The position numbers and the translations under genes are program-made. Positions 55,569 through 64,000 of a stretch of 64,000 nt of DNA are shown one piece after another. Position 1 is the stretch's first letter; each line of letters opens with the position of its first letter. Where the stretch lies: positions 5,208,001 through 5,272,000 of the forward strand of contig NZ_CP108352.1 in NCBI RefSeq assembly GCF_036237275.1. The letters run 5' to 3'. Source of the DNA: Streptomyces sp. NBC_01353. GTDB taxonomy: Bacteria > Actinomycetota > Actinomycetes > Streptomycetales > Streptomycetaceae. Under the pieces are notes generated by a model, which made no database searches, was not told where the DNA came from, and saw only the letters and a program-made list of their open reading frames with translations.

Positions 55569-55970
55569 GTGAACAGGCGTTTCGCCGGCATTCTGACCGC
55601 ACTTGCCATCGGGACCGTCAGCCCGCTCGCCATGGCGTCGGCTGCGGAGGCGTCACCGTCGTGCCCCGAGGGCGTGGTGTGTCTGCACTACAACAGCGGA
55701 TGGCAGGGTGCGTTCTTCCAGACCTGGTATTCCATCTCCGACTTCGCGGGCTACAAGTTCAAGAACTGTAGCGTCAACGGTTCGGGGTGCGCCGGCTACG
55801 AGCTGGACGTGAAGAACAACGCCGCTTCCGCCACGAACACGCGCGACGGTGGCGCCACCATCTACTTCAACTCGAACTACAAGGGCGCCTACGACGTCAT
55901 CTGGCCGAACTCGGCCGATGGGCAGCTCTCCAACACCTACAACGAGAACGCTTCGATAAAGGTCTACTAG
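55569..55970 (+). CDS. Secreted I36/beta-gamma-crystallin-like small protein
   Basis: 133 residues from GTG with CAGGAGG upstream. The signal peptide (1-28) ends AAEAS. The mature part has CPEGVVCLHYNSGWQGAFFQ, a second Cys pair (NCSVNGSGC) and TIYFNSNYKGAYDVIWPNSA. It fits the peptidase-inhibitor I36 (SMI, Streptomyces metalloproteinase inhibitor) family and its crystallin-type Greek-key fold. It may inhibit extracellular metalloproteases or be structural. Its neighbour encodes a CMKESG-family exported protein, the same pairing as at the right end of the window. Confidence 0.82.
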   Translation: MNRRFAGILTALAIGTVSPLAMASAAEASPSCPEGVVCLHYNSGWQGAFFQTWYSISDFAGYKFKNCSVNGSGCAGYELDVKNNAASATNTRDGGATIYFNSNYKGAYDVIWPNSADGQLSNTYNENASIKVY

Positions 55971-55986
55971 TCGTACGGATCTCCCC

Positions 55987-56030
55987 GCGTGCCGTTGCCT
56001 TGTTGTTCCGAGGCGGCGGCACGCTTTTCT
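55987..56030 (+). terminator. Intrinsic terminator or attenuator with T-run
   Basis: GCGTGCCG (55987-55994) pairs with CGGCACGC (56017-56024), followed directly by TTTTCTT, the only classical hairpin-plus-T-tract in the window. It sits between the I36-like gene and its CMKESG partner, 20 bases before that gene's leader, so partial read-through could set their ratio. Confidence 0.75.
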
Positions 56031-56050
56031 TGCATGTGGACGGTGGGTGT

Positions 56051-56920
56051 ATGAACAAGAAGATCCTTGTCCTCGCGGCTGCGGCGATTTCCGGCGTGGC
56101 TGCCGTGGTCGTCTGGGCCGGGGGTGCTGTCGGCACCGACGACCCCGGAGGGCCCGAAGGATCCCGAGCCGCCGGGGAGAGAGCGAAGGAGCGGGAGTCC
56201 GAAGAGGACAGATTCCGGAGCAGATCCATGCCGATTCAGCAGTACCTTCCGACGCGGAGCGACGAGCTGCTGTTCAGAGCGGCCAAGAAGACGCTGATCG
56301 AGAAATGCATGATCAGAAGCGGCGTGAAGGAGTTCGAGCTTCCTGAGCCGCAGGCCGATATGCAGAGCCCGCTCGAGCGCCGGTACGGGCTCAGCCTTTC
56401 CGCGGAAGCCGGGAAATACGGCTACGACTTGCCCCCGTCGAAGGACCCGGGGCGCCTTCAACCCAAGTTGTCCCTTTCGAAGCAGCAGAACCTGTTGTTC
56501 TTCGGGGCTCAGACCGGAGGCGACGGTGGGTGCGTCGGAGAAGCGAGTCGGAAGATCGGCGTCCCGAGGACTCCGGTCGCATCGAAGATCCAGATCGAAT
56601 CCTGGCAGAAATCCATGAAGGACCCGAGGGTCGAATCGGCGTTTCGGCGCTGGTCCTCATGCATGAAGGAGAGCGGTTTCACCTTCGCCAATCCCATGGA
56701 CACGCCCGGACGCGCCAAGACATCCGCCGCCGAGAAGAAGAAGCTGGCCGGCGCGGAGGTCGCGTGCAACTACTCGTCGGGAGTCCTGTTCACGTGGCTC
56801 ACGGCGGACAGCGAACTGCAGGAGAAGTCGATATCCGAGCACAGGACGGCTCTGCTGGCCGAGCGGCGCGAGGTGCAGGCGGCCGTGGCTCGCGCCGAAG
56901 GAGCCACGACCTCTCGGTGA
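56051..56920 (+). CDS. Exported protein of an unnamed CMKESG-motif family
   Basis: 289 residues. An N-terminal hydrophobic helix (about 4-28) with no lipobox gives a signal peptide or anchor. A charged linker (residues 30-58) follows, then a helical domain with conserved Cys: KKTLIEKCMIRSGVKEF, GGCVGEASRKIGV, DPRVESAFRRWSSCMKESGF and LAGAEVACNY. A helical tail (SEHRTALLAERREVQAAVAR) ends it. Every one of these blocks has a counterpart, in the same order, in the lipoprotein at 61825-62796. I know no function. The conserved Cys suggest disulfides in an extracytoplasmic protein. Codon use is a little less GC-biased than the neighbours. Confidence 0.75.
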   Translation: MNKKILVLAAAAISGVAAVVVWAGGAVGTDDPGGPEGSRAAGERAKERESEEDRFRSRSMPIQQYLPTRSDELLFRAAKKTLIEKCMIRSGVKEFELPEPQADMQSPLERRYGLSLSAEAGKYGYDLPPSKDPGRLQPKLSLSKQQNLLFFGAQTGGDGGCVGEASRKIGVPRTPVASKIQIESWQKSMKDPRVESAFRRWSSCMKESGFTFANPMDTPGRAKTSAAEKKKLAGAEVACNYSSGVLFTWLTADSELQEKSISEHRTALLAERREVQAAVARAEGATTSR

Positions 56921-56935
56921 TCGCCCGCCACGCGC

Positions 56936-56982
56936 GGACGAAAGGAGGGGCTCCCCGCAACGGGGAGCCCCTCCTTTCGTCC
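56936..56982. terminator. Very strong bidirectional terminator
   Basis: A perfect 22-bp stem (56936-56957 with 56961-56982) with a CAA loop, the longest in the window, lies between the CMKESG-family gene and the convergent LCP gene. Confidence 0.95.
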
Positions 56983-57001
56983 GGTCGTCGCCGGTGGGCG
57001 G

Positions 57002-58267
57002 TCAGCGGTTCGACGTCACCGTCACCGGCTCGTCGTTCTGGATCTGCTGCACCAGCTGCTTCACCTTCGGCATGTCCCACTTCAGCGAGCCCTGCGGCGC
57101 GCTGCCCGAGATCGGGATGTTCATCGACTTGCCGTCGCCGCCGCTGATGCCCTTCATCGCGAAGAACATCTTGCCGAGGTCGTACAGCGACATGTCCTTG
57201 TCGACGATCAGCGTGTCCAGGCCGGCGCTCAGCGTCGGGTACAGCCTGAACGGGTTGAGGATCGTGCCCGGCGTCGCCGCCTGGTTGGCCAGGGCGGACA
57301 GGAACTTCTGCTGGTTCTTCGTCCGCGCGAGGTCCGACTCGGCGAACGCGTACCGGGTACGGACGAACGCGAGGGCCTGCTCGCCGTTGAGGGTCTGCTC
57401 GCCCGCCTGGAAGTCGGCGCCGGACTTGTCGTCCTTGAAGCCCTTCTCGATGTTCAGGTCGACACCGCCGAGCGCGTCCACGATGTTCGCGAAGCCGGCG
57501 AAGCCGATCTCCGCGTAGTGGTCGATGCGCAGCCCGGTGTTGAACTCGACCGTGCGGACCAGGAGCTCCGGGCCGTCCATCGCGTACGCCGCGTTCAGCT
57601 TGGAGCCGCCACGAGCCCCGTACTTCTTCCCGGACTCCGAGCCGACGAACGAGGGGATCGTCACCCACGAGTCACGGGGCAGCGAGACCATCGTGTTCCC
57701 GCTGGAACAGGCGGCGAGGATCATCATCGAGTCGGTCCGCTTGCCCTGCGCGGAACCGGTGTGCAGCTTCTTCTTCTCCTCGGCCGACATGCCCTCACGG
57801 CTGTCGGAGCCGACGATCAGATACGTCGTGCAGTCGCCCTCGGCCGGCCGCTCGATGACCTTGGCCAGATCGACCTCGTTACGCATCTGGGAGCTGGCCC
57901 AGGCGTACGTGCCGATGCCCCAGGCCAGCACGGCCACGACCAGGACGATCGAGCCGACCTTGACGCGGCGGCGCCAGTCCGGTGCCGGACGGCCGGGCGA
58001 ACCGGGGTACCCCTGGCCCGGCTGCGGCGGAGCGACGGGGGGCTGCTGCCCGCCGCCGTAGTTCCGCTGCCCGTAGACCTGCCCGGTGTTGTAGCCGCTG
58101 TCGTACCCGGAGCCCTGCCGCGGCTGGCCCTGGCCGTAACCGGGGTCGTACTGCGGCGGCTGCTGGGGCACCTGCGGGCGCTGCACATGGCGCATCCGGC
58201 GGGCTCCCTCGGGCTGAGAGCTCGAGCTGCCGCGGCCGTATCCGCCGTCATCGGGCCAGTCATTCAT
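57002..58267 (-). CDS. LytR-CpsA-Psr (LCP) family glycopolymer transferase
   Basis: 421 residues from ATG (MNDWPDDGGYGRGSSSSQPE). The cytoplasmic N-terminus (~100 residues) is Gln/Gly/Tyr/Pro-rich and disordered. One TM helix (about 105-125) precedes an extracellular LCP domain: TDSMMILAACSSGNTMVSLP, RDSWVTIP, GGSKLNAAYAMDGPELLVRT, DHYAEIGFAGFANIVDALGG and ALAFVRTRYAFAESDLARTK (catalytic Arg cluster). LCP enzymes ligate polyprenyl-linked wall polymers to peptidoglycan. It has no LytR_C domain, unlike the second copy 0.8 kb away. The ribosome site is weak. Confidence 0.93.
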   Translation of the reverse strand: MNDWPDDGGYGRGSSSSQPEGARRMRHVQRPQVPQQPPQYDPGYGQGQPRQGSGYDSGYNTGQVYGQRNYGGGQQPPVAPPQPGQGYPGSPGRPAPDWRRRVKVGSIVLVVAVLAWGIGTYAWASSQMRNEVDLAKVIERPAEGDCTTYLIVGSDSREGMSAEEKKKLHTGSAQGKRTDSMMILAACSSGNTMVSLPRDSWVTIPSFVGSESGKKYGARGGSKLNAAYAMDGPELLVRTVEFNTGLRIDHYAEIGFAGFANIVDALGGVDLNIEKGFKDDKSGADFQAGEQTLNGEQALAFVRTRYAFAESDLARTKNQQKFLSALANQAATPGTILNPFRLYPTLSAGLDTLIVDKDMSLYDLGKMFFAMKGISGGDGKSMNIPISGSAPQGSLKWDMPKVKQLVQQIQNDEPVTVTSNR

Positions 58268-58386
58268 GCGGACCAGTGTGCAGGCCGCCTCCCGAGCGCC
58301 GACAGGGCGGGTGGGGAATAGGGGCGGCGCTGTTGCCAAGCTGATGCAAAGAGGACGAGACCGGGACCCGGCATAAGGTGGAGGGC

Positions 58387-58944
58387 ATGACAGATCAGGC
58401 CGAGCGCACGGACCGCCCGCAGGGTGATATTCCGGGCAAGCCCACCTCCGCGTCCCGCACCACCCTCAGTCACATCATGACCAGCCATGACACGAACCTC
58501 CTGGGTACGGTGCACGGCGGCGTGATCATGAAGCTGGTGGACGACGCGGCGGGCGCCGTCGCGGGGCGGCACTCGGGTGGTCCGGCCGTGACCGCCTCCA
58601 TGGACGAGATGGCGTTCCTGGAGCCGGTACGGGTCGGGGACCTGCTCCATGTGAAGGCCCAGGTCAACTGGACCGGCCGCTCCTCGATGGAGGTCGGCGT
58701 CCGCGTCATGGCCGAGCGCTGGAACGAGTCCACCCCCGCCCAGCAGGTCGGCTCGGCCTATCTGGTCTTCGCGGCGGTCGACGGCGACGGCAAGCCGCGC
58801 CCGGTCCCGCCGGTGCAACCGGAGACCGAGCGGGACAAGCGCCGCTACCAGGAGGCCCAGATCCGCCGCACCCACCGACTGGCCCGCCGCCGCGCGATCA
58901 TGGAGCTGCGGGAGCGCCGCGCGGCGGAGGGCTACGAGGACTGA
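58387..58944 (+). CDS. Acyl-CoA thioesterase, hotdog fold (YciA/BACH type)
   Basis: 185 residues, ATG preceded by AAGGTGGAG. Hotdog domain about 20-140: SRTTLSHIMTSHDTNLLGTV, HGGVIMKLVDDAAGAVAGRH (catalytic Asp), TASMDEMAFLEPVRVGDLLH, and SSMEVGVRVMAERW. The C-terminus is a charged Arg-rich helix. It hydrolyses acyl-CoA in the cytosol. It lies between two LCP genes transcribed on the opposite strand, and no functional link is evident. Confidence 0.92.
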   Translation: MTDQAERTDRPQGDIPGKPTSASRTTLSHIMTSHDTNLLGTVHGGVIMKLVDDAAGAVAGRHSGGPAVTASMDEMAFLEPVRVGDLLHVKAQVNWTGRSSMEVGVRVMAERWNESTPAQQVGSAYLVFAAVDGDGKPRPVPPVQPETERDKRRYQEAQIRRTHRLARRRAIMELRERRAAEGYED

Positions 58945-59017
58945 CGCCCGGGGTGGGCACAACGGAACGGCGCCGTGGCGGGCGCGTCCGCTCCGTGGCC
59001 CCCGCACCACGACGGCG

Positions 59018-60493
59018 CTACGGGCACACCACCTCGTCCCCCCTCACCGCCACGAACGGCCCCTTCGTCGGCTCCTCCGGCCGCACCGGTGCGACCCCCT
59101 TGTAGTCCGCGCCCACGAAGACCCGCAGCGTCGCACCGCGCCCCTTCACCGCCTTCAGCTCCGCCCCCGGCAGCGCCGCCGCCAGGGACTTCGCCGAGCG
59201 GTCCCAGCGCGGGTCGTACTCCACCACCGTGCGCGGGCGAGGGGCTCCGCCCCCGGTCCGCGGCGCGCGCGTCGTGTTGAAGCCCGTGGCCCGCAGCGCG
59301 TCGTCGGCCTTCCGGCCCACACCGACCGTCCGCGTCGCGTTGTAGACCTGCACCCGGATCGTCTTCGGCGCCACATCCACCACCGCCGCCTTCGGCCCGC
59401 CCTTCGCCACCGCCTTGTGCGGGGCGAGCGGCCGGTCGTCGCGCACGGCCTGGAACAGCTTCTGCGCCTTGGGCGCGTCCCACTTCACCGTCGAGCCGAT
59501 GCCCTTCACCCGGAAGCTCACATCCCCGATCGGCACCGAGACGAACTCCGAGGACGCCGGGGTGAAGCCCCGCATCGCCTTCGCGAGGGCCAGGATCTGC
59601 TCCGTACCGAATCCGCCGTCCGCCCGCACCGAGTTCAGCATCGTCGTGGCGACCTCGCGGAACCGCACCGGATTGAGCAGCACCCCGCCACTGGTCATCC
59701 GGTCGACCAGCGCCGCCAGGAACCGCTGCTGGCGCTGCATCCGGCTGATGTCGGCCGCCCCGTCGACATGGCGCGCCCGCACGTACTGGAGCGCCTGCCC
59801 GCCGTTCATCTCATGCGGTCCGGCCGGCAGGTCGAGCCCGGTGTACGAGTCCTTCAGCGGCCGCGCCGTACAGATCTGCACCCCGCCGACCGCGTCCACC
59901 GTCTTCATGAAGCTGGTGAAATCGACCTCCAGATAGTGGTCGATCTTGACGCCCGTCATCCTCTCGACGGTCCGTACCGTCAGACCGGGCCCGCCCTCGG
60001 CGTACGCGGCATTCAGCTTCACCGGATGCGCCTGGTGCCGCCGGCCGGTGGTCTCGTCGATGTGCTCGGGCATCTCGGCGTACGAGTCGCGGGGCAGACT
60101 CACCACGCTGGCCCGCTCCCGGTCCTCGGAGATGTGGACGAGCATCACGGTGTCGGTGCAGCGACAGGGTTTCCCGCCGAGGCGGAACTCCCTCCGCTCC
60201 TTCTCCGTGATCCTGTCCCGCCCGTCCGTGCCCACGACCAGCACGTTCATGCCGTTCCCGGCCTGGGGGCGGTTCTTCATGTCCCTGAAGGGATCGACCC
60301 GGGTGATCCCGGTGTCCAGACCGGTCACCATCGCGTGGCCGATGCCGCCGGCGCCGAGCACGAGAACGGAGAGGGTCGTCGCGATCCGCATCCCCCACCG
60401 TGGCCGCCGGACCCGTCGGACCCGTCTGACACGGCGGGCCGGTACGGAACGGGCGGCCGGCCGGGGACGGGGCGTGCGGGGCGGTGTGGGCAC
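59018..60493 (-). CDS. LCP family glycopolymer transferase with LytR_C domain
   Basis: 491 residues. GTG start with GGAGG nine bases upstream; GTG at 60535 is a less supported alternative. The basic N-terminus (RRVRRVRRVRRPRWG) precedes one TM helix (about 36-57). LCP domain: MNVLVVGTDGRDRITEKERR, TDTVMLVHISEDRERASVVS, LPRDSYAEMP, HPVKLNAAYAEGGPGLTVRT and ALQYVRARHVDGAADISRMQ. The C-terminal LytR_C domain (about 360-470) has IRVQVYNATRTVGVGRKADD and ALRATGF. It attaches glycopolymers to peptidoglycan outside the membrane. It diverges from a GT2 gene, suggesting shared wall-glycopolymer work. Confidence 0.93.
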   Translation of the reverse strand: MPTPPRTPRPRPAARSVPARRVRRVRRVRRPRWGMRIATTLSVLVLGAGGIGHAMVTGLDTGITRVDPFRDMKNRPQAGNGMNVLVVGTDGRDRITEKERREFRLGGKPCRCTDTVMLVHISEDRERASVVSLPRDSYAEMPEHIDETTGRRHQAHPVKLNAAYAEGGPGLTVRTVERMTGVKIDHYLEVDFTSFMKTVDAVGGVQICTARPLKDSYTGLDLPAGPHEMNGGQALQYVRARHVDGAADISRMQRQQRFLAALVDRMTSGGVLLNPVRFREVATTMLNSVRADGGFGTEQILALAKAMRGFTPASSEFVSVPIGDVSFRVKGIGSTVKWDAPKAQKLFQAVRDDRPLAPHKAVAKGGPKAAVVDVAPKTIRVQVYNATRTVGVGRKADDALRATGFNTTRAPRTGGGAPRPRTVVEYDPRWDRSAKSLAAALPGAELKAVKGRGATLRVFVGADYKGVAPVRPEEPTKGPFVAVRGDEVVCP

Positions 60494-60620
60494 CGGGGGA
60501 CACCTCCGCGGGTGGGACGAGGGGACCGTGAGCACGGTAGGCCCATACGATCAGCGACCTCGGGCACCCGCCCCCGTGACGCGCTTCGTGTCCCCCGTTC
60601 GCGGTAACGTGGCGGGCAAT

Positions 60621-61649
60621 ATGAACGCCATGCCCGCCGCCCTGCCCCCCGTCTCCGTGATCATGCCGGTCCTCAACGAGGAGCGGCATCTGCGCAACTC
60701 GGTCCGTCACATCCTCGAGCAGGAGTACGACGGCGAGATGGAGGTGGTGATCGCGCTCGGCCCGTCCACGGACCGTACGGACGAGATCGCCGCCGAACTC
60801 GTACGGGAGGACCCCCGGGTCCACACCGTGCCGAACCCCACGGGCCGCACGCCCGCCGCCCTCAACGCGGCGATCAAGGCCTCCCGTCACCCGATCGTGG
60901 TGCGCGTCGACGGTCACGGGATGCTGTCGCCCAACTACATCGCGACCGCGGTCCGCCTCCTGGAGGAGACCGGCGCGCAGAACGTCGGCGGCATCATGCA
61001 CGCCGAGGGCGAGAACGACTGGGAGCACGCGGTCGCCGCCGCGATGACCTCGAAGATCGGCGTCGGCAACGCGGCGTTCCACACCGGTGGCCAGGCGGGC
61101 CCGGCCGAGACCGTGTATCTGGGTGTCTTCCGCCGTGAGGCCCTGGAGCGGCAGGACGGGTACAACGTGGAGTTCATCCGCGCCCAGGACTGGGAGCTGA
61201 ACTTCCGTATCCGCGAGGCGGGCGGTCTGATCTGGTTCTCGCCGGAGCTGCGCGTCCAGTACCGACCCCGCCCGAGCGTCCGCGCGCTGGCGAAGCAGTA
61301 CAAGGACTACGGCCGGTGGCGCCATGTCGTGGCCCGCTACCACCAGGGCTCCATCAACCTCCGCTACCTCGCCCCGCCGACCGCCGTCTGTGCGATCGCG
61401 GCCGGCCTGGTCGTGGGCGTCGCGCTCACCCCCCTCGGCTTCGTGATCCCGGCCGGCTACCTCGCCGCGATCACCGCGGGCTCGGTCCCGGCGGGCAAGG
61501 GCCTCCCGCTGAAGGCTCGCCTCCAGATCCCGGTGGCCCTCACGACGATGCACATGTCCTGGGGCTACGGCTTCCTGACCAGCCCGCGCGCGCTGGCACG
61601 GAAGGTCATCGCGAGCCGCCGCCCGGCGGTGAAGACCGCGGAGGTCTGA
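60621..61649 (+). CDS. Family 2 glycosyltransferase (ExoA-like) with C-terminal membrane segment
   Basis: 342 residues. GT-A motifs: VSVIMPVLNEERHLRNSVRH, VVIALGPSTDRTDEIAAE, VVRVDGHGMLSPNYI (DXD-like) and FIRAQDWELNFRIREAGGLI (ED acceptor motif). Two or three hydrophobic helices occupy about 250-300. It resembles ExoA-type enzymes of exopolysaccharide synthesis. ATG 60621 has only GGCGGG upstream; ATG 60630 is an alternative. TAACGT 16 bases before the start could be a -10 box, giving a very short leader. A 20-bp terminator follows. Confidence 0.9.
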   Translation: MNAMPAALPPVSVIMPVLNEERHLRNSVRHILEQEYDGEMEVVIALGPSTDRTDEIAAELVREDPRVHTVPNPTGRTPAALNAAIKASRHPIVVRVDGHGMLSPNYIATAVRLLEETGAQNVGGIMHAEGENDWEHAVAAAMTSKIGVGNAAFHTGGQAGPAETVYLGVFRREALERQDGYNVEFIRAQDWELNFRIREAGGLIWFSPELRVQYRPRPSVRALAKQYKDYGRWRHVVARYHQGSINLRYLAPPTAVCAIAAGLVVGVALTPLGFVIPAGYLAAITAGSVPAGKGLPLKARLQIPVALTTMHMSWGYGFLTSPRALARKVIASRRPAVKTAEV

Positions 61650-61659
61650 CCTCGGACAT

Positions 61660-61703
61660 ACGACGAGACCGACCGATGCCGTCGCATCGGTCGGTCTCGT
61701 CGT
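61660..61703. terminator. Strong bidirectional hairpin terminator
   Basis: A 20-bp uninterrupted stem (61660-61679 with 61684-61703) with a CGTC loop lies between the GT2 gene and the convergent CMKESG/I36 operon. Nothing further is seen in 61704-61824. Confidence 0.93.
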
Positions 61704-61824
61704 TCGAACGGGGTCAGCCGCACACGGCCGCGGCCGCCGGAAGGCGGCCGGCCTTCTGCGGAATCACCTCTTCCTTCGGTTCGTCGCGGGGATCCGCGGA
61801 TGTCGGTCGGTGACGGACGGACCG

Positions 61825-62796
61825 TCAGCCCCTGTTCGTCAGCAGCTCGTTCGCCTTCGCGAGCGCCGACTTCCAGGTGTCACGCGCCGCCGACAGCGCC
61901 GTGACGTTCTTCTCGATGAGCTTGTTCTGGTGCTCGGCCTCGATGGTCGAGTGGACGCGGACGTAGTCCACCTTCTGCTTGCACTTCACGTCCGTGGAGG
62001 CGACGGTGATCTCCCGCGGCTTCGGGGTGCCCGCGGCGTCGCTGTCCTTGCTCCCGTCGCCCCCCTCGCCGGCCGTCCACGCCGGATCGCCGGCGGCCGC
62101 CAGCGGGTCGGTGTAGTGGTAGCCCGACTCCTTCATGCAGGCGGACCAGCGCTGGTTGAGCGTGCTGACCCGGGGGTCGTTGCCCGCCTGCTTCGACGCC
62201 TGGAGGTTCACCTTGTTGAAGGTGGCGTCGAGGCCGGCGACATCGCCGAGGCCCACCTTGCGACGCGTCTCGCCGAGACAGCCACCCTCGGGGACGCTCT
62301 TGCCGTTCACCGACGAAGGACCGTCGCCCTTGTAGAGCGTCATCGCCGCGGGCGAGACGTTCGCGTAGTGCGCGCGTTGCTTCACGGTGGCCTGCTCGGC
62401 CTGGCGGGCCGTCATCCCCTTGGGGAGCGGCGGGTGGTAGCCGAAGGCGGCGACCGACTCGAGGTCGGTCACCCCGTAGAGACGGGCGTTGGAGTTCAGG
62501 TTCCGAGGGGTCGGCGGCAGTGGTGCCGGCCAGTCGAAGCCGTACTTCTTCATGCAGTCGCCCGCGAGCGTGGCGACGGCCTGGCTGAGCGCCTCCCGCT
62601 CCTGCGCGGTGACGGTGTACGAGTCCACCGGCAGACTGATGCCGACGCCACCCCAGGTCTTGGACGCCTGCGGCTTGTACGGCTGCACGGCGGCTGCGGG
62701 ATCCTGCGGCTTCTCGTCGGACGAGCACCCCACGGCCGTCCAGGCGAGAGCGGCGACGAGCAGCAGCCCACCGGTTCTGTTGCGTGTGTTCATCAT
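61825..62796 (-). CDS. Lipoprotein of the unnamed CMKESG-motif family
   Basis: 323 residues. The signal peptide has lipobox TAVGCSS (Cys24), so it is a lipoprotein. It shares the ordered blocks of the protein at 56051-56920: AGDCMKKYGFDWPAPLPP, ARLYGVTDLESVAAFGYHPP, GGCLGETRRKVGLGD, NDPRVSTLNQRWSACMKESG, then VKCKQKVDYVRVHSTIEAEH and a helical C-terminus. Function unknown. Its ATG overlaps the stop of the upstream I36-like gene (ATGA), so the two are translationally coupled. It is the last gene of an operon of at least four. Confidence 0.82.
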   Translation of the reverse strand: MMNTRNRTGGLLLVAALAWTAVGCSSDEKPQDPAAAVQPYKPQASKTWGGVGISLPVDSYTVTAQEREALSQAVATLAGDCMKKYGFDWPAPLPPTPRNLNSNARLYGVTDLESVAAFGYHPPLPKGMTARQAEQATVKQRAHYANVSPAAMTLYKGDGPSSVNGKSVPEGGCLGETRRKVGLGDVAGLDATFNKVNLQASKQAGNDPRVSTLNQRWSACMKESGYHYTDPLAAAGDPAWTAGEGGDGSKDSDAAGTPKPREITVASTDVKCKQKVDYVRVHSTIEAEHQNKLIEKNVTALSAARDTWKSALAKANELLTNRG

Positions 62797-63206
62797 CCGG
62801 GGCAGTAGGCGTTGTTCTCGAAGCAGTGGGAGGAGATCTCGTTGTCGTCGTCCCAGACCGCCATGTCCCAGAGCGTCAGGCCGGGGTCGGCATGCGTCCT
62901 GGTGCCGGTGTAGTTCTGGCCGGTGTAGACGTCGATGGCGTTGACCGAGTCACGGTTTCTGACCGAGGAGACCGTGTTGTCTATCAGCGTCGAGGTGCCG
63001 TAGTACGTGGAGCCGTTGTAGTTGGTCTTGCTGTAGATCGTGTCGTACAGCCCGCCGGTGAAGTCGGCGAGGCGGTACAGACAGATCTCGCCGCCGGCGC
63101 TCTCGCAGGAGCCGTTGTAGCTGGCGGCGTTGGCGGTGCCGGCGGCGCCGGCGATCAGCGCGCCCGCGGCGGCGAGAGCCAGCGCGGCCTTCTTGACGTT
63201 CTTCAT
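62793..63206 (-). CDS. Secreted I36/beta-gamma-crystallin-like protein, copy 1
   Basis: 137 residues. The signal peptide (1-28, AAGALIAGAAGTANA) is almost identical to copy 2. Mature features: YNGSCESAGGEICLYRLADF, GGLYDTIYSKTNYNGSTYYG, LIDNTVSSVRNRDSVNAIDV and the C-terminal Cys pair HCFENNAYCPG. Family I36/SMI (peptidase inhibitor) or crystallin-like. GAGGA lies upstream of ATG. It is one of three tandem paralogues, coupled by ATGA to the CMKESG lipoprotein downstream. Confidence 0.88.
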   Translation of the reverse strand: MKNVKKAALALAAAGALIAGAAGTANAASYNGSCESAGGEICLYRLADFTGGLYDTIYSKTNYNGSTYYGTSTLIDNTVSSVRNRDSVNAIDVYTGQNYTGTRTHADPGLTLWDMAVWDDDNEISSHCFENNAYCPG

Positions 63207-63228
63207 GCTGGGGGGATCCTCAGGGTGA

Positions 63229-63651
63229 TCAGGAGGGGCAGTAGGCGTTGCTGCTGAAGCAGTGGGAGGAGATCGCGTCGTCGGTCTGGCCGTCCCAGAA
63301 GACCGCCATGTCCCAGAGGTTCAGACCGGGGTCGGCGTGCACGCGCAGGCCGGTGTAGTTCTGGCCGGTCCAGACCTCGATGGAGTTGACGCCGTCACGG
63401 TTCTTGACCGAGGAGACGGTGTTGTCGATCAGCACGGAGGTGCCGTAGTAGGTGGAGCCGTTGTAGTTGGTCTTGCTGTAGATCGTGTCGTACAGCCCGC
63501 CCGTGTAGTTCGCGTAGCGGTACAGACAGATCTCGCCGCCGGCGCTCTCGCAGGAGCCGTTGTAGCTGGCGGCGTTGGCGGTGCCGGCGGCGCCGGCGAT
63601 CAGCGCGCCCGCGGCGGCCAGGGCCGCGGCGGCCTTCTTGAACTTCGCCAT
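63229..63651 (-). CDS. Secreted I36/beta-gamma-crystallin-like protein, copy 2
   Basis: 140 residues, ATG with AAGGAG seven bases upstream. Mature part begins ASYNGSCESAGGEICLYRYA and ends HCFSSNAYCPS. Long runs of DNA are identical to copy 1, especially the signal-peptide half, showing recent duplication or gene conversion. Differences cluster around residues 100-130 (EVWTGQNYTGLRVHADPGLN, FWDGQTDDAISS), where a ligand- or protease-binding loop might lie. Same operon as its neighbours. Confidence 0.88.
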   Translation of the reverse strand: MAKFKKAAAALAAAGALIAGAAGTANAASYNGSCESAGGEICLYRYANYTGGLYDTIYSKTNYNGSTYYGTSVLIDNTVSSVKNRDGVNSIEVWTGQNYTGLRVHADPGLNLWDMAVFWDGQTDDAISSHCFSSNAYCPS

Positions 63652-63668
63652 GGTGGACGCTCCTTCGG

Positions 63669-64000
63669 TCAGATGGGGCAGTACGCGTTGCTGCTGAAGC
63701 AGTGCGAGGAGGCGATGTCGTCGCCATAGCGGAGCCACAGGCCGGCCGGGAGGTACTCCAGGGTTCCGGTGTAGTTCTTGCCGCTGTAGAACCCGACGTT
63801 GTTGACCATGTCCATGTTCTTGGCCGAGGACAGGGTGTTGTCGATCAGCGTCTGGGTGCCGTAGTACGTCGAGCCGTCGTAGTTGGTCTTGCTGTACAGC
63901 GTGTCGTACAGCCCACCGGCGAACTCGTAGTTGCGGTAGAGGCAGATCTCGCCGCCGCCGCTGCTCTCGCAGGAGCCGTTGTAGCTGCCGGCACTTGCCG
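63669..64000 (-). CDS. Secreted I36/beta-gamma-crystallin-like protein, copy 3 (5' end outside window)
   Basis: About 110 C-terminal residues are present, ending in TGA at 63669-63671. They begin ASAGSYNGSCESSGGGEICL, run through YEFAGGLYDTLYSKTNYDGS and TYYGTQTLIDNTLSSAKNMD, and end HCFSSNAYCPI. This is the most diverged of the three copies, in the middle section (VGFYSGKNYTGTLEYLPAGL). Its stop lies 17 bases before the start of copy 2, so the genes are co-transcribed. The signal peptide lies beyond the window. Confidence 0.87.
   Translation of the reverse strand, partial: ASAGSYNGSCESSGGGEICLYRNYEFAGGLYDTLYSKTNYDGSTYYGTQTLIDNTLSSAKNMDMVNNVGFYSGKNYTGTLEYLPAGLWLRYGDDIASSHCFSSNAYCPI

What the first reader, a model, noticed from the sequence alone, without database searches (positions are those of the whole stretch)
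55569..64000. Recurring two-component module: I36/crystallin-like protein plus CMKESG-family exported protein
Two loci 5 kb apart, on opposite strands, each pair a small secreted I36-like protein with a member of an unnamed exported family. The members share ordered blocks (DPRV...RWS-x-CMKESG, GGC-x-GE-x-x-RK-x-G, R-x-YG...GY). At the right-hand locus the pair is translationally coupled (ATGA at 62793-62796). Repeated pairing implies joint function, such as inhibitor and cognate tether, or toxin-like effector and immunity/lipoprotein receptor.
Basis: partly seen in the sequence, partly recalled or inferred. Interest (0 to 1): 0.82.

Follow-up and report, generated by a model that had tools for sequence, protein, structure and literature searches.

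The report
Crystallin-like protein paired with helical lipoprotein
A Streptomyces-like soil bacterium and its relatives carry several copies of a two-gene unit that makes a small secreted eye-lens-like protein and a membrane-attached partner of an unnamed family, sometimes beside a pump, which points to an unstudied cell-surface system.

Summary
The two "CMKESG" proteins are homologous along their length (E 3e-22). They belong to a family without a Pfam, NCBIfam or PDB sequence match. The family has four conserved cysteines, mostly a lipobox, and a confident all-helical model (pLDDT 82). The window's genome has seven such genes, each beside an I36/crystallin-like gene. Of 167 family members, 123 have an adjacent I36-like gene, 119 of these on the same strand. 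Both gene orders occur, with 4-bp overlaps in both. In named loci not used to build the profiles, 21 of 28 are paired. Partners co-diversify (r 0.72; partner-shuffled mean 0.31).

The family is also tied to a MacAB-like exporter. One lies 0.3 kb past the window edge. In 61 Streptomyces genomes all 12 close HlyD genes found have a CMK gene within about 3 kb, though only 7 of 123 I36 pairs have HlyD within two genes. Elsewhere I36 is replaced by SH3-like or ricin-lectin-like proteins. The right-hand I36 proteins carry the calcium-type crystallin motif twice.

Best reading: the CMK protein captures its cognate secreted protein at the membrane, originally for a MacAB-like machine. Binding and purpose are untested.

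The parts
55569..55970 (+). Left I36/beta-gamma-crystallin-like secreted protein (P0001, 133 aa, GTG start, signal peptide by eye, 4 Cys)
   Evidence: PF03995 27.9 bits, cut-off 21.1; one relaxed crystallin motif NNAAS, no strict motif
56051..56920 (+). Left CMK-family protein (P0002, 289 aa); N-terminal hydrophobic stretch without lipobox Cys
   Evidence: four family cysteines conserved
61825..62796 (-). Right CMK-family lipoprotein (P0003, 323 aa); lipobox AVGC at C24; family cysteines C81, C173, C220, C272; predicted all-helical
   Evidence: AlphaFold2 mean pLDDT 82.4, pTM 0.75
62793..63206 (-). Right I36/crystallin-like protein 1 (P0004, 137 aa); ATGA overlap with the CMK gene; motifs DNTVSS and DNEISS
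   Evidence: (31.9 bits)
63229..63651 (-). Right I36/crystallin-like protein 2 (P0005, 140 aa); motifs DNTVSS and DDAISS
   Evidence: (27.8 bits)
63669..64000 (-). Right I36/crystallin-like protein 3, cut by the window edge (133 aa, to 64070 in the genome); motifs DNTLSS and DDIASS

Best explanation
The module is a secreted, disulfide-containing beta-gamma-crystallin-like protein plus its own cognate membrane-anchored helical partner (CMK protein). The CMK protein sits on the outer face of the membrane and captures the small protein there. Each paralogous pair is specific, so the pairs have diversified together. The CMK family originated as, or still is, the ligand-capture lipoprotein of an actinobacterial MacAB-like machine (PG-binding HlyD adaptor, ABC ATPase, MacB/FtsX permease). 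That machine would move the bound small protein away from the membrane through the peptidoglycan. In most I36 pairs the exporter is not next door, so the pair either uses one elsewhere or now works alone as a capture/display pair. Shown: homology, secretion and lipoprotein signals (by pattern), pairing, coupling, co-diversification, exporter linkage, all-helical model. Inferred: physical binding, capture by CMK, hand-over to the exporter, direction and purpose of transport.
For: Pairing: 7 of 7 CMK genes in the own genome; 123 of 167 kept members, 119 of 123 on the same strand, 85 with I36 first and 34 with CMK first, median gap 72 bp, 12 overlaps spread over both orders. In a named set not used for the profiles, 21 of 28 loci (23 of 28 in the smaller search once its two duplicates are left out). 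Co-diversification: r 0.72 over 62 pairs, none of 5000 within-genome partner shuffles as high (maximum 0.57). Exporter: 3 of 3 HlyD matches in the own genome (E <= 1e-5) lie beside CMK-I36 pairs; 12 of 12 HlyD genes above 80 bits in 61 genomes lie within about 3 kb of a CMK gene, 9 of the 12 also near an I36-like gene; 18 of 167 CMK genes are directly upstream of HlyD, six with a 4-bp overlap. Sensor-like use of the same domain: L170.
Against: No binding or activity data. Physically linked genes co-inherit, so correlated trees do not prove contact. Only 7 of 123 I36-paired CMK genes have HlyD within two genes (stretches of about 4 kb a side, so more distant ones are missed). 128 of the 150 listed Pfam I36 genes have no CMK gene within 2.5 kb. 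44 of 167 CMK genes have no I36 neighbour, and some have no small secreted neighbour at all. P0002 lacks a lipobox. No PDB fold comparison of CMK and no model of the I36 protein or the complex could be made.
Confidence: 0.5

Rival explanations
1. Secreted antimicrobial-like protein and its immunity lipoprotein. The crystallin-like protein harms competitors; the CMK lipoprotein binds it at the producer's own membrane, and where present the MacAB-like pump expels it. This works like lantibiotic immunity (LanI lipoprotein plus LanFEG transporter, recalled).
For: Small secreted gene beside a lipoprotein gene, patchy presence (45 of 61 Streptomyces genomes, some matches leader-only), several divergent pairs per genome, co-diversification, two-component regulators and ECF sigma genes near some CMK loci. 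Beta-gamma-crystallin antifungal/killer proteins are known from Streptomyces (recalled, not tested).
Against: No toxin domain or toxicity evidence; the small proteins are slightly acidic (median charge -3). The 128 of 150 listed I36 genes without a near CMK gene would lack a linked immunity gene.
Confidence: 0.25
2. Protease inhibitor and cell-surface tether: the I36 protein inhibits an extracellular metalloprotease and CMK holds it at the surface.
For: Pfam I36 match above cut-off for P0001, P0004, P0005; lipobox in P0003.
Against: The partner profile hits beta-gamma-crystallins in the PDB; calcium-type motifs in the right-hand proteins. At other CMK genes the small neighbour is SH3-like or ricin-lectin-like, which makes protease inhibition an unlikely common purpose.
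Confidence: 0.1
3. Envelope sensor: the small secreted protein is a calcium- or glycan-binding probe and CMK reports its state to regulators or to the exporter.
For: CMK domain on an anti-sigma-like protein next to an ECF sigma gene (L170); ECF genes in L247, L255, L312, L313 and OmpR-type regulators in L204, L207, L221, L243. Partner folds (crystallin, SH3, ricin lectin) are surface-binding types.
Against: In the listed neighbourhoods most I36 pairs show no regulator next door (by eye); CMK proteins are mostly plain lipoproteins without a cytoplasmic part.
Confidence: 0.12
4. Linkage without interaction: two exported proteins co-transcribed and moved together as a mobile cassette.
For: Patchy distribution; 35 of 72,556 plasmid records carry a match to P0003.
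Against: Adjacency is kept although the gene order changes six times on the tree as built, and coupling exists in both orders; cassette inheritance alone would not restore adjacency after rearrangement.
Confidence: 0.08

Closest known systems
Peptidase inhibitor family I36 (PF03995; founder Streptomyces metalloproteinase inhibitor SMPI, recalled)
   Same: P0001, P0004 and P0005 score above the Pfam cut-off
   Different: Inhibition untested; the L031, L032 and L034 partners are below the cut-off or unmatched
Microbial beta-gamma-crystallins (PDB 2k1w, 3hz2, spherulin 3a, Protein S)
   Same: Profile match, best E 2.6e-8; double calcium-type motif in the right-hand proteins
   Different: Secreted, with cysteines, and paired with a CMK gene in these loci
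MacAB-type ABC machines (E. coli MacAB-TolC; Gram-positive MacAB-like pump of Streptococcus pneumoniae, PMC10094684, passages seen)
   Same: MacB_PCD plus FtsX permease, ABC ATPase, HlyD-like adaptor
   Different: Adaptor carries a peptidoglycan-binding domain; extra CMK lipoprotein and small secreted partner; no outer membrane
LanI/LanFEG lantibiotic immunity (recalled)
   Same: Lipoprotein plus ABC transporter plus small secreted product, two-component regulators nearby in some loci
   Different: Folded protein with a Sec-type leader instead of a modified peptide; MacB/FtsX permease with HlyD; no toxicity known
Actinobacterial 'CMRxxG...FPDP' lipoproteins of HlyD-MacB operons (no family name found)
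   Same: Same operon place, four cysteines, two CM-x-x-x-G-like motifs
   Different: Shorter; profile comparison weak (85.9% probability, mostly leader), so kinship is only suggested

Membership tests
Peptidase inhibitor family I36 | PF03995 domain above gathering score | tested here: met
   P0001 27.9, P0004 31.9, P0005 27.8 bits against cut-off 21.1
Peptidase inhibitor family I36 | Inhibits a metalloprotease | not testable with these tools
   No assay; none of the PDB sequence hits is named SMPI
Beta-gamma-crystallin | Sequence-profile kinship to solved beta-gamma-crystallins | tested here: met
   profile of 25 partners, E 2.6e-8 to 2k1w/3hz2; single-sequence searches found none
Beta-gamma-crystallin, calcium-binding type | Two [ND][ND]xx[ST]S motifs (pattern recalled) in the right-hand proteins | tested here: met
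   two each in the three right-hand proteins; 29 of 123 partners have two or more, 47 of 123 at least one; mean 0.63 against 0.05 in shuffles
Beta-gamma-crystallin, calcium-binding type | Same motif in the left-hand protein P0001 | tested here: not met
   no strict motif, one relaxed
MacAB-type exporter (outside the window, 64311-67683) | HlyD-like adaptor, ABC ATPase, MacB_PCD/FtsX permease | tested here: met
   PG_binding_1, ABC_tran, FtsX and MacB_PCD over cut-off; HlyD_3 at 16.8 bits is under its cut-off 22.2
LanI-type immunity lipoprotein | Lipoprotein signal | tested here: inconclusive
   Lipobox met by P0003, not by P0002; 118 of 167 family members by pattern, with gene-start errors among the rest
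LanI-type immunity system | LanFEG-type transporter | tested here: not met
   The permease beside the right locus is MacB/FtsX type with a HlyD partner
Toxin-immunity pair | Toxicity of one partner neutralised by the other | not testable with these tools
   No assay
Any Pfam/NCBIfam/PDB family (for CMK) | Significant match | tested here: not met
   nothing above a curated cut-off or below E 0.04; viral fold library no match with E <= 0.001; PDB fold search not run

The most novel reading that the evidence does not exclude
An undescribed actinobacterial envelope system: a four-cysteine helical lipoprotein is the constant receptor that presents interchangeable small secreted beta proteins (calcium-binding crystallin, SH3-like, ricin-lectin-like) to a peptidoglycan-anchored MacAB-like machine, which moves them through the thick wall; the receptor-ligand pair has been duplicated into seven cognate pairs in the window's genome.
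Probability: 0.3. Interest if true: 0.85.

Novelty: new variant of a known kind. Interest (0 to 1): 0.6.

Why it matters
In 59 of 61 Streptomyces genomes Pfam finds I36 genes whose role is inferred only from the name. This work gives a subset of them, plus relatives that Pfam misses, a cognate partner family without a name and a link to an exporter, and so a testable role. If the MacAB link is functional, it would show how a folded small protein is received and moved at a single-membrane cell surface with a thick wall, a question that I take to be open for Gram-positive MacAB-like machines (recalled).

Tried and rejected
Chance: rejected. Internal duplication of CMK halves: hhalign finds only the 14-column CM...G...P motif (83.6% probability), not enough. 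Kinship with the short CMRxxG lipoproteins: suggestive only. Lactococcin-972-like partner in L176: no Pfam match, dropped. Phage origin: tblastn of P0003 alone found no hit in 50,697 phage records. Charge complementarity between partners: r -0.25 over phylogenetically linked pairs, not used. A match at 2759225 in the own genome covers only the leader (46 columns) and was not counted. Literature: ten searches showed no paper on the pair; of these, 87 and 88 listed only 12 of 305 and 10 of 214,796 papers, the library lacks most subscription journals, and apart from passages of PMC10094684 only listings with abstract starts were seen. A PDB fold search of the CMK model and a model of the I36 protein could not be run.

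Caveats on counts: the gene calls come from my own simple caller. The I36-like profile was grown from eight seed proteins chosen by hand beside CMK genes of the own genome. Of the seven own pairs, four have an I36 gene over the Pfam cut-off (two window loci, L033, L037); L031, L032 and L034 rest on weaker likeness. CMK rows outside 220-400 aa and two duplicate loci (L258, L259) were dropped before the count of 167; 158 and 34 genes were found before that. Three of 33 named loci gave no CMK call (L269, L277, L285). The tree is a FastTree tree with 54 of 164 inner branches weak; of its 12 changes of I36 presence, starred branches force 5. Of 12 HlyD genes above 80 bits, two (L312, L313) have a CMK gene that the first profile had not listed and no I36 neighbour.
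Full report
WHAT IS THERE. The window lies in an 8.6 Mb two-contig genome; its closest named relative at the right locus is a Streptomyces (L253, 90% identity in CMK). At the left locus a GTG-started I36-like gene (55569-55970) is followed by a CMK-family gene (56051-56920). At the right locus three I36-like genes (63669 to about 64070, 63229-63651, 62793-63206) lead into a CMK gene (62796-61825) with a 4-bp ATGA overlap. The two CMK proteins align over 316 columns, E 3e-22. Among 59 aligned members four cysteines are invariant (C81, C173, C220, C272 of P0003) and M82, G86, G119, G157, G172, W217, M221, G225, P231, A266 nearly so; in a second set of 31, C81 is kept in 90% or more and the other three in all. 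No Pfam, NCBIfam or PDB sequence family matches CMK. AlphaFold2 gives an all-helical fold with mean pLDDT 82.4 and pTM 0.75, with the first 50 residues and 244-254 poor; a search of predicted viral structures found nothing at E <= 0.001. A PDB fold search could not be run.

THE WINDOW SHOWS TWO OF SEVEN PAIRS. The own genome has CMK genes at 0.27, 0.72, 2.24, 3.53, 4.52, 5.264 and 5.270 Mb. All seven have an adjacent small I36-like gene; four of the seven loci have one above the Pfam cut-off, the others are weaker. At 0.27 Mb the order is CMK first. I36 genes without CMK exist at 0.99 and 5.99 Mb.

CO-OCCURRENCE. The family was found in 45 of 61 Streptomyces genomes (E <= 1e-3, some leader-only matches included), 96 of 394 genomes of the class (E <= 1e-5) and 23 of 396 of the phylum (E <= 1e-5), five candidates scored per genome in the last two. 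I fetched neighbourhoods and called genes. Of 167 kept CMK genes 123 have an immediately adjacent I36-like gene. Of these 119 are co-directional, 85 with I36 first and 34 with CMK first, median gap 72 bp, and 12 overlap, including 4-bp overlaps in both orders (five and two). On the FastTree tree the order changes six times and partner presence twelve (many weak forks). The named loci were not used to build the profiles: 21 of 28 non-duplicate loci with a CMK call are paired. A check with Pfam alone: of the 150 best I36 hits listed for 61 genomes, 22 lie within 2.5 kb of a CMK match, against 0.19 expected; 128 do not. So a CMK gene usually has an I36-like neighbour, while most listed I36 genes have no CMK neighbour.

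CO-DIVERSIFICATION. Over 62 pairs from 35 genomes the distance matrices correlate at r 0.72. Shuffling partners within each genome gives a mean of 0.31 and a maximum of 0.57 in 5000 trials. Within-genome comparisons alone (56 from 15 genomes) give r 0.66, p 0.0018. Within one gene order r is 0.69 and 0.77. The partners move as a cognate unit; linkage alone can produce part of this.

THE EXPORTER. Directly past the window edge, divergent from the three I36 genes, lie a HlyD-like protein with a peptidoglycan-binding domain (64311-65699 in window numbering), an ABC ATPase (65696-66427) and a MacB/FtsX permease (66526-67683). With this HlyD as query the own genome gives three matches and all three lie beside CMK-I36 pairs. 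In 61 Streptomyces genomes twelve HlyD genes above 80 bits were found, in nine genomes; all twelve have a CMK gene within about 3 kb and nine of them also an I36-like gene. Over the full set 18 of 167 CMK genes sit directly upstream of HlyD on the same strand, six of them with a 4-bp overlap. Against this, only 7 of the 123 I36-paired CMK genes have HlyD within two genes. In the fetched Microbacterium and Cellulomonas stretches the CMK-HlyD-ATPase-permease operon occurs without I36. Ten weaker HlyD loci in Streptomyces: four carry a shorter lipoprotein with two CM-x-x-x-G-like motifs, four cysteines and an FPDP or NPT motif, and seven give a weak CMK-profile match, nine of ten with one or the other. 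These are likely but unproven relatives.

OTHER PARTNERS AND REGULATORS. Where I36 is missing the small neighbour can be SH3-like (L166 at the Pfam cut-off; L272 with a weak SH3_3 score; L136 and L196 by likeness to it) or a ricin-type lectin-like secreted protein (both L227 copies above cut-off). One CMK domain is the outer part of a membrane protein (topology by eye) whose gene overlaps an ECF sigma factor gene (L170), as is usual for anti-sigma factors. OmpR-type regulators (L204, L207, L221, L243), histidine kinases (L204, L221) or ECF factors (L170, L247, L255, L312, L313) lie near CMK loci; other loci were not scanned for regulators.

THE I36 PARTNERS. By profile they match solved beta-gamma-crystallins. 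The strict calcium-type motif is found at least once in 47 and at least twice in 29 of 123 partners, mean 0.63 against 0.05 in shuffled sequences; each of the three right-hand proteins has two, P0001 none. 104 of 123 have two or four cysteines, and the median charge is -3. The inhibitor label is therefore only a name here.

HOW IT MOST LIKELY WORKS. I commit to capture of a cognate secreted small protein by the membrane-held CMK protein, with the MacAB-like machine as the original downstream device. MacAB of E. coli is involved in secretion of a heat-stable enterotoxin, its substrates leave from the periplasm, and MacAB-like pumps exist in Gram-positive bacteria (PMC10094684, passages and reference list). 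Whether the purpose here is secretion through the wall, self-protection, display or sensing is open. The immunity reading is the strongest rival. Binding itself is inferred.

NOVELTY. The parts are of known kinds (crystallin-like proteins, lipoproteins, MacAB-like exporters), but CMK is in no family library searched and the ten literature searches named under Tried and rejected showed no description of the pair (two of them saw only the top of long lists). I rate it a new variant of a known kind, with a bolder reading left open.

Noticed in passing
window 57002-58195 (-), 59018-60391 (-), 60621-61649 (+): Between the two pair loci lie two proteins that look like LytR-CpsA-Psr cell-wall ligases and a glycosyltransferase (by eye, recalled; no family search run). 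The Streptomyces sp. Je 1-79 locus L253 has similar neighbours.
   Followed up: no
L227 3215-4819 and 9577-11285: Two tandem pairs of ricin-lectin-like secreted protein plus CMK protein flanking a 1367-aa protein.
   Followed up: partly
L170 3992-5466: CMK domain carried by a membrane protein with a cytoplasmic N-terminus (by eye), gene overlapping an ECF sigma factor gene.
   Followed up: partly
L316, L319, L320, L324: Short lipoproteins with CMRxxG...FPDP and CMRDNG motifs upstream of HlyD-MacB operons; no Pfam family above cut-off for L316, L319, L320 and no NCBIfam family for L316, L320.
   Followed up: partly
L252 1-14684: One short contig of a distant actinobacterial genome carries four CMK-like genes and an I36-like gene among genes that look like transposase genes by eye.
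   Followed up: no
L036 5425-5868 and L038 5200-5691: I36-like genes of the own genome without a CMK neighbour.
   Followed up: partly
L253 7043-7486: In the closest relative an extra small secreted gene, also caught by the I36-like profile, follows the CMK gene at the right-locus counterpart.
   Followed up: no
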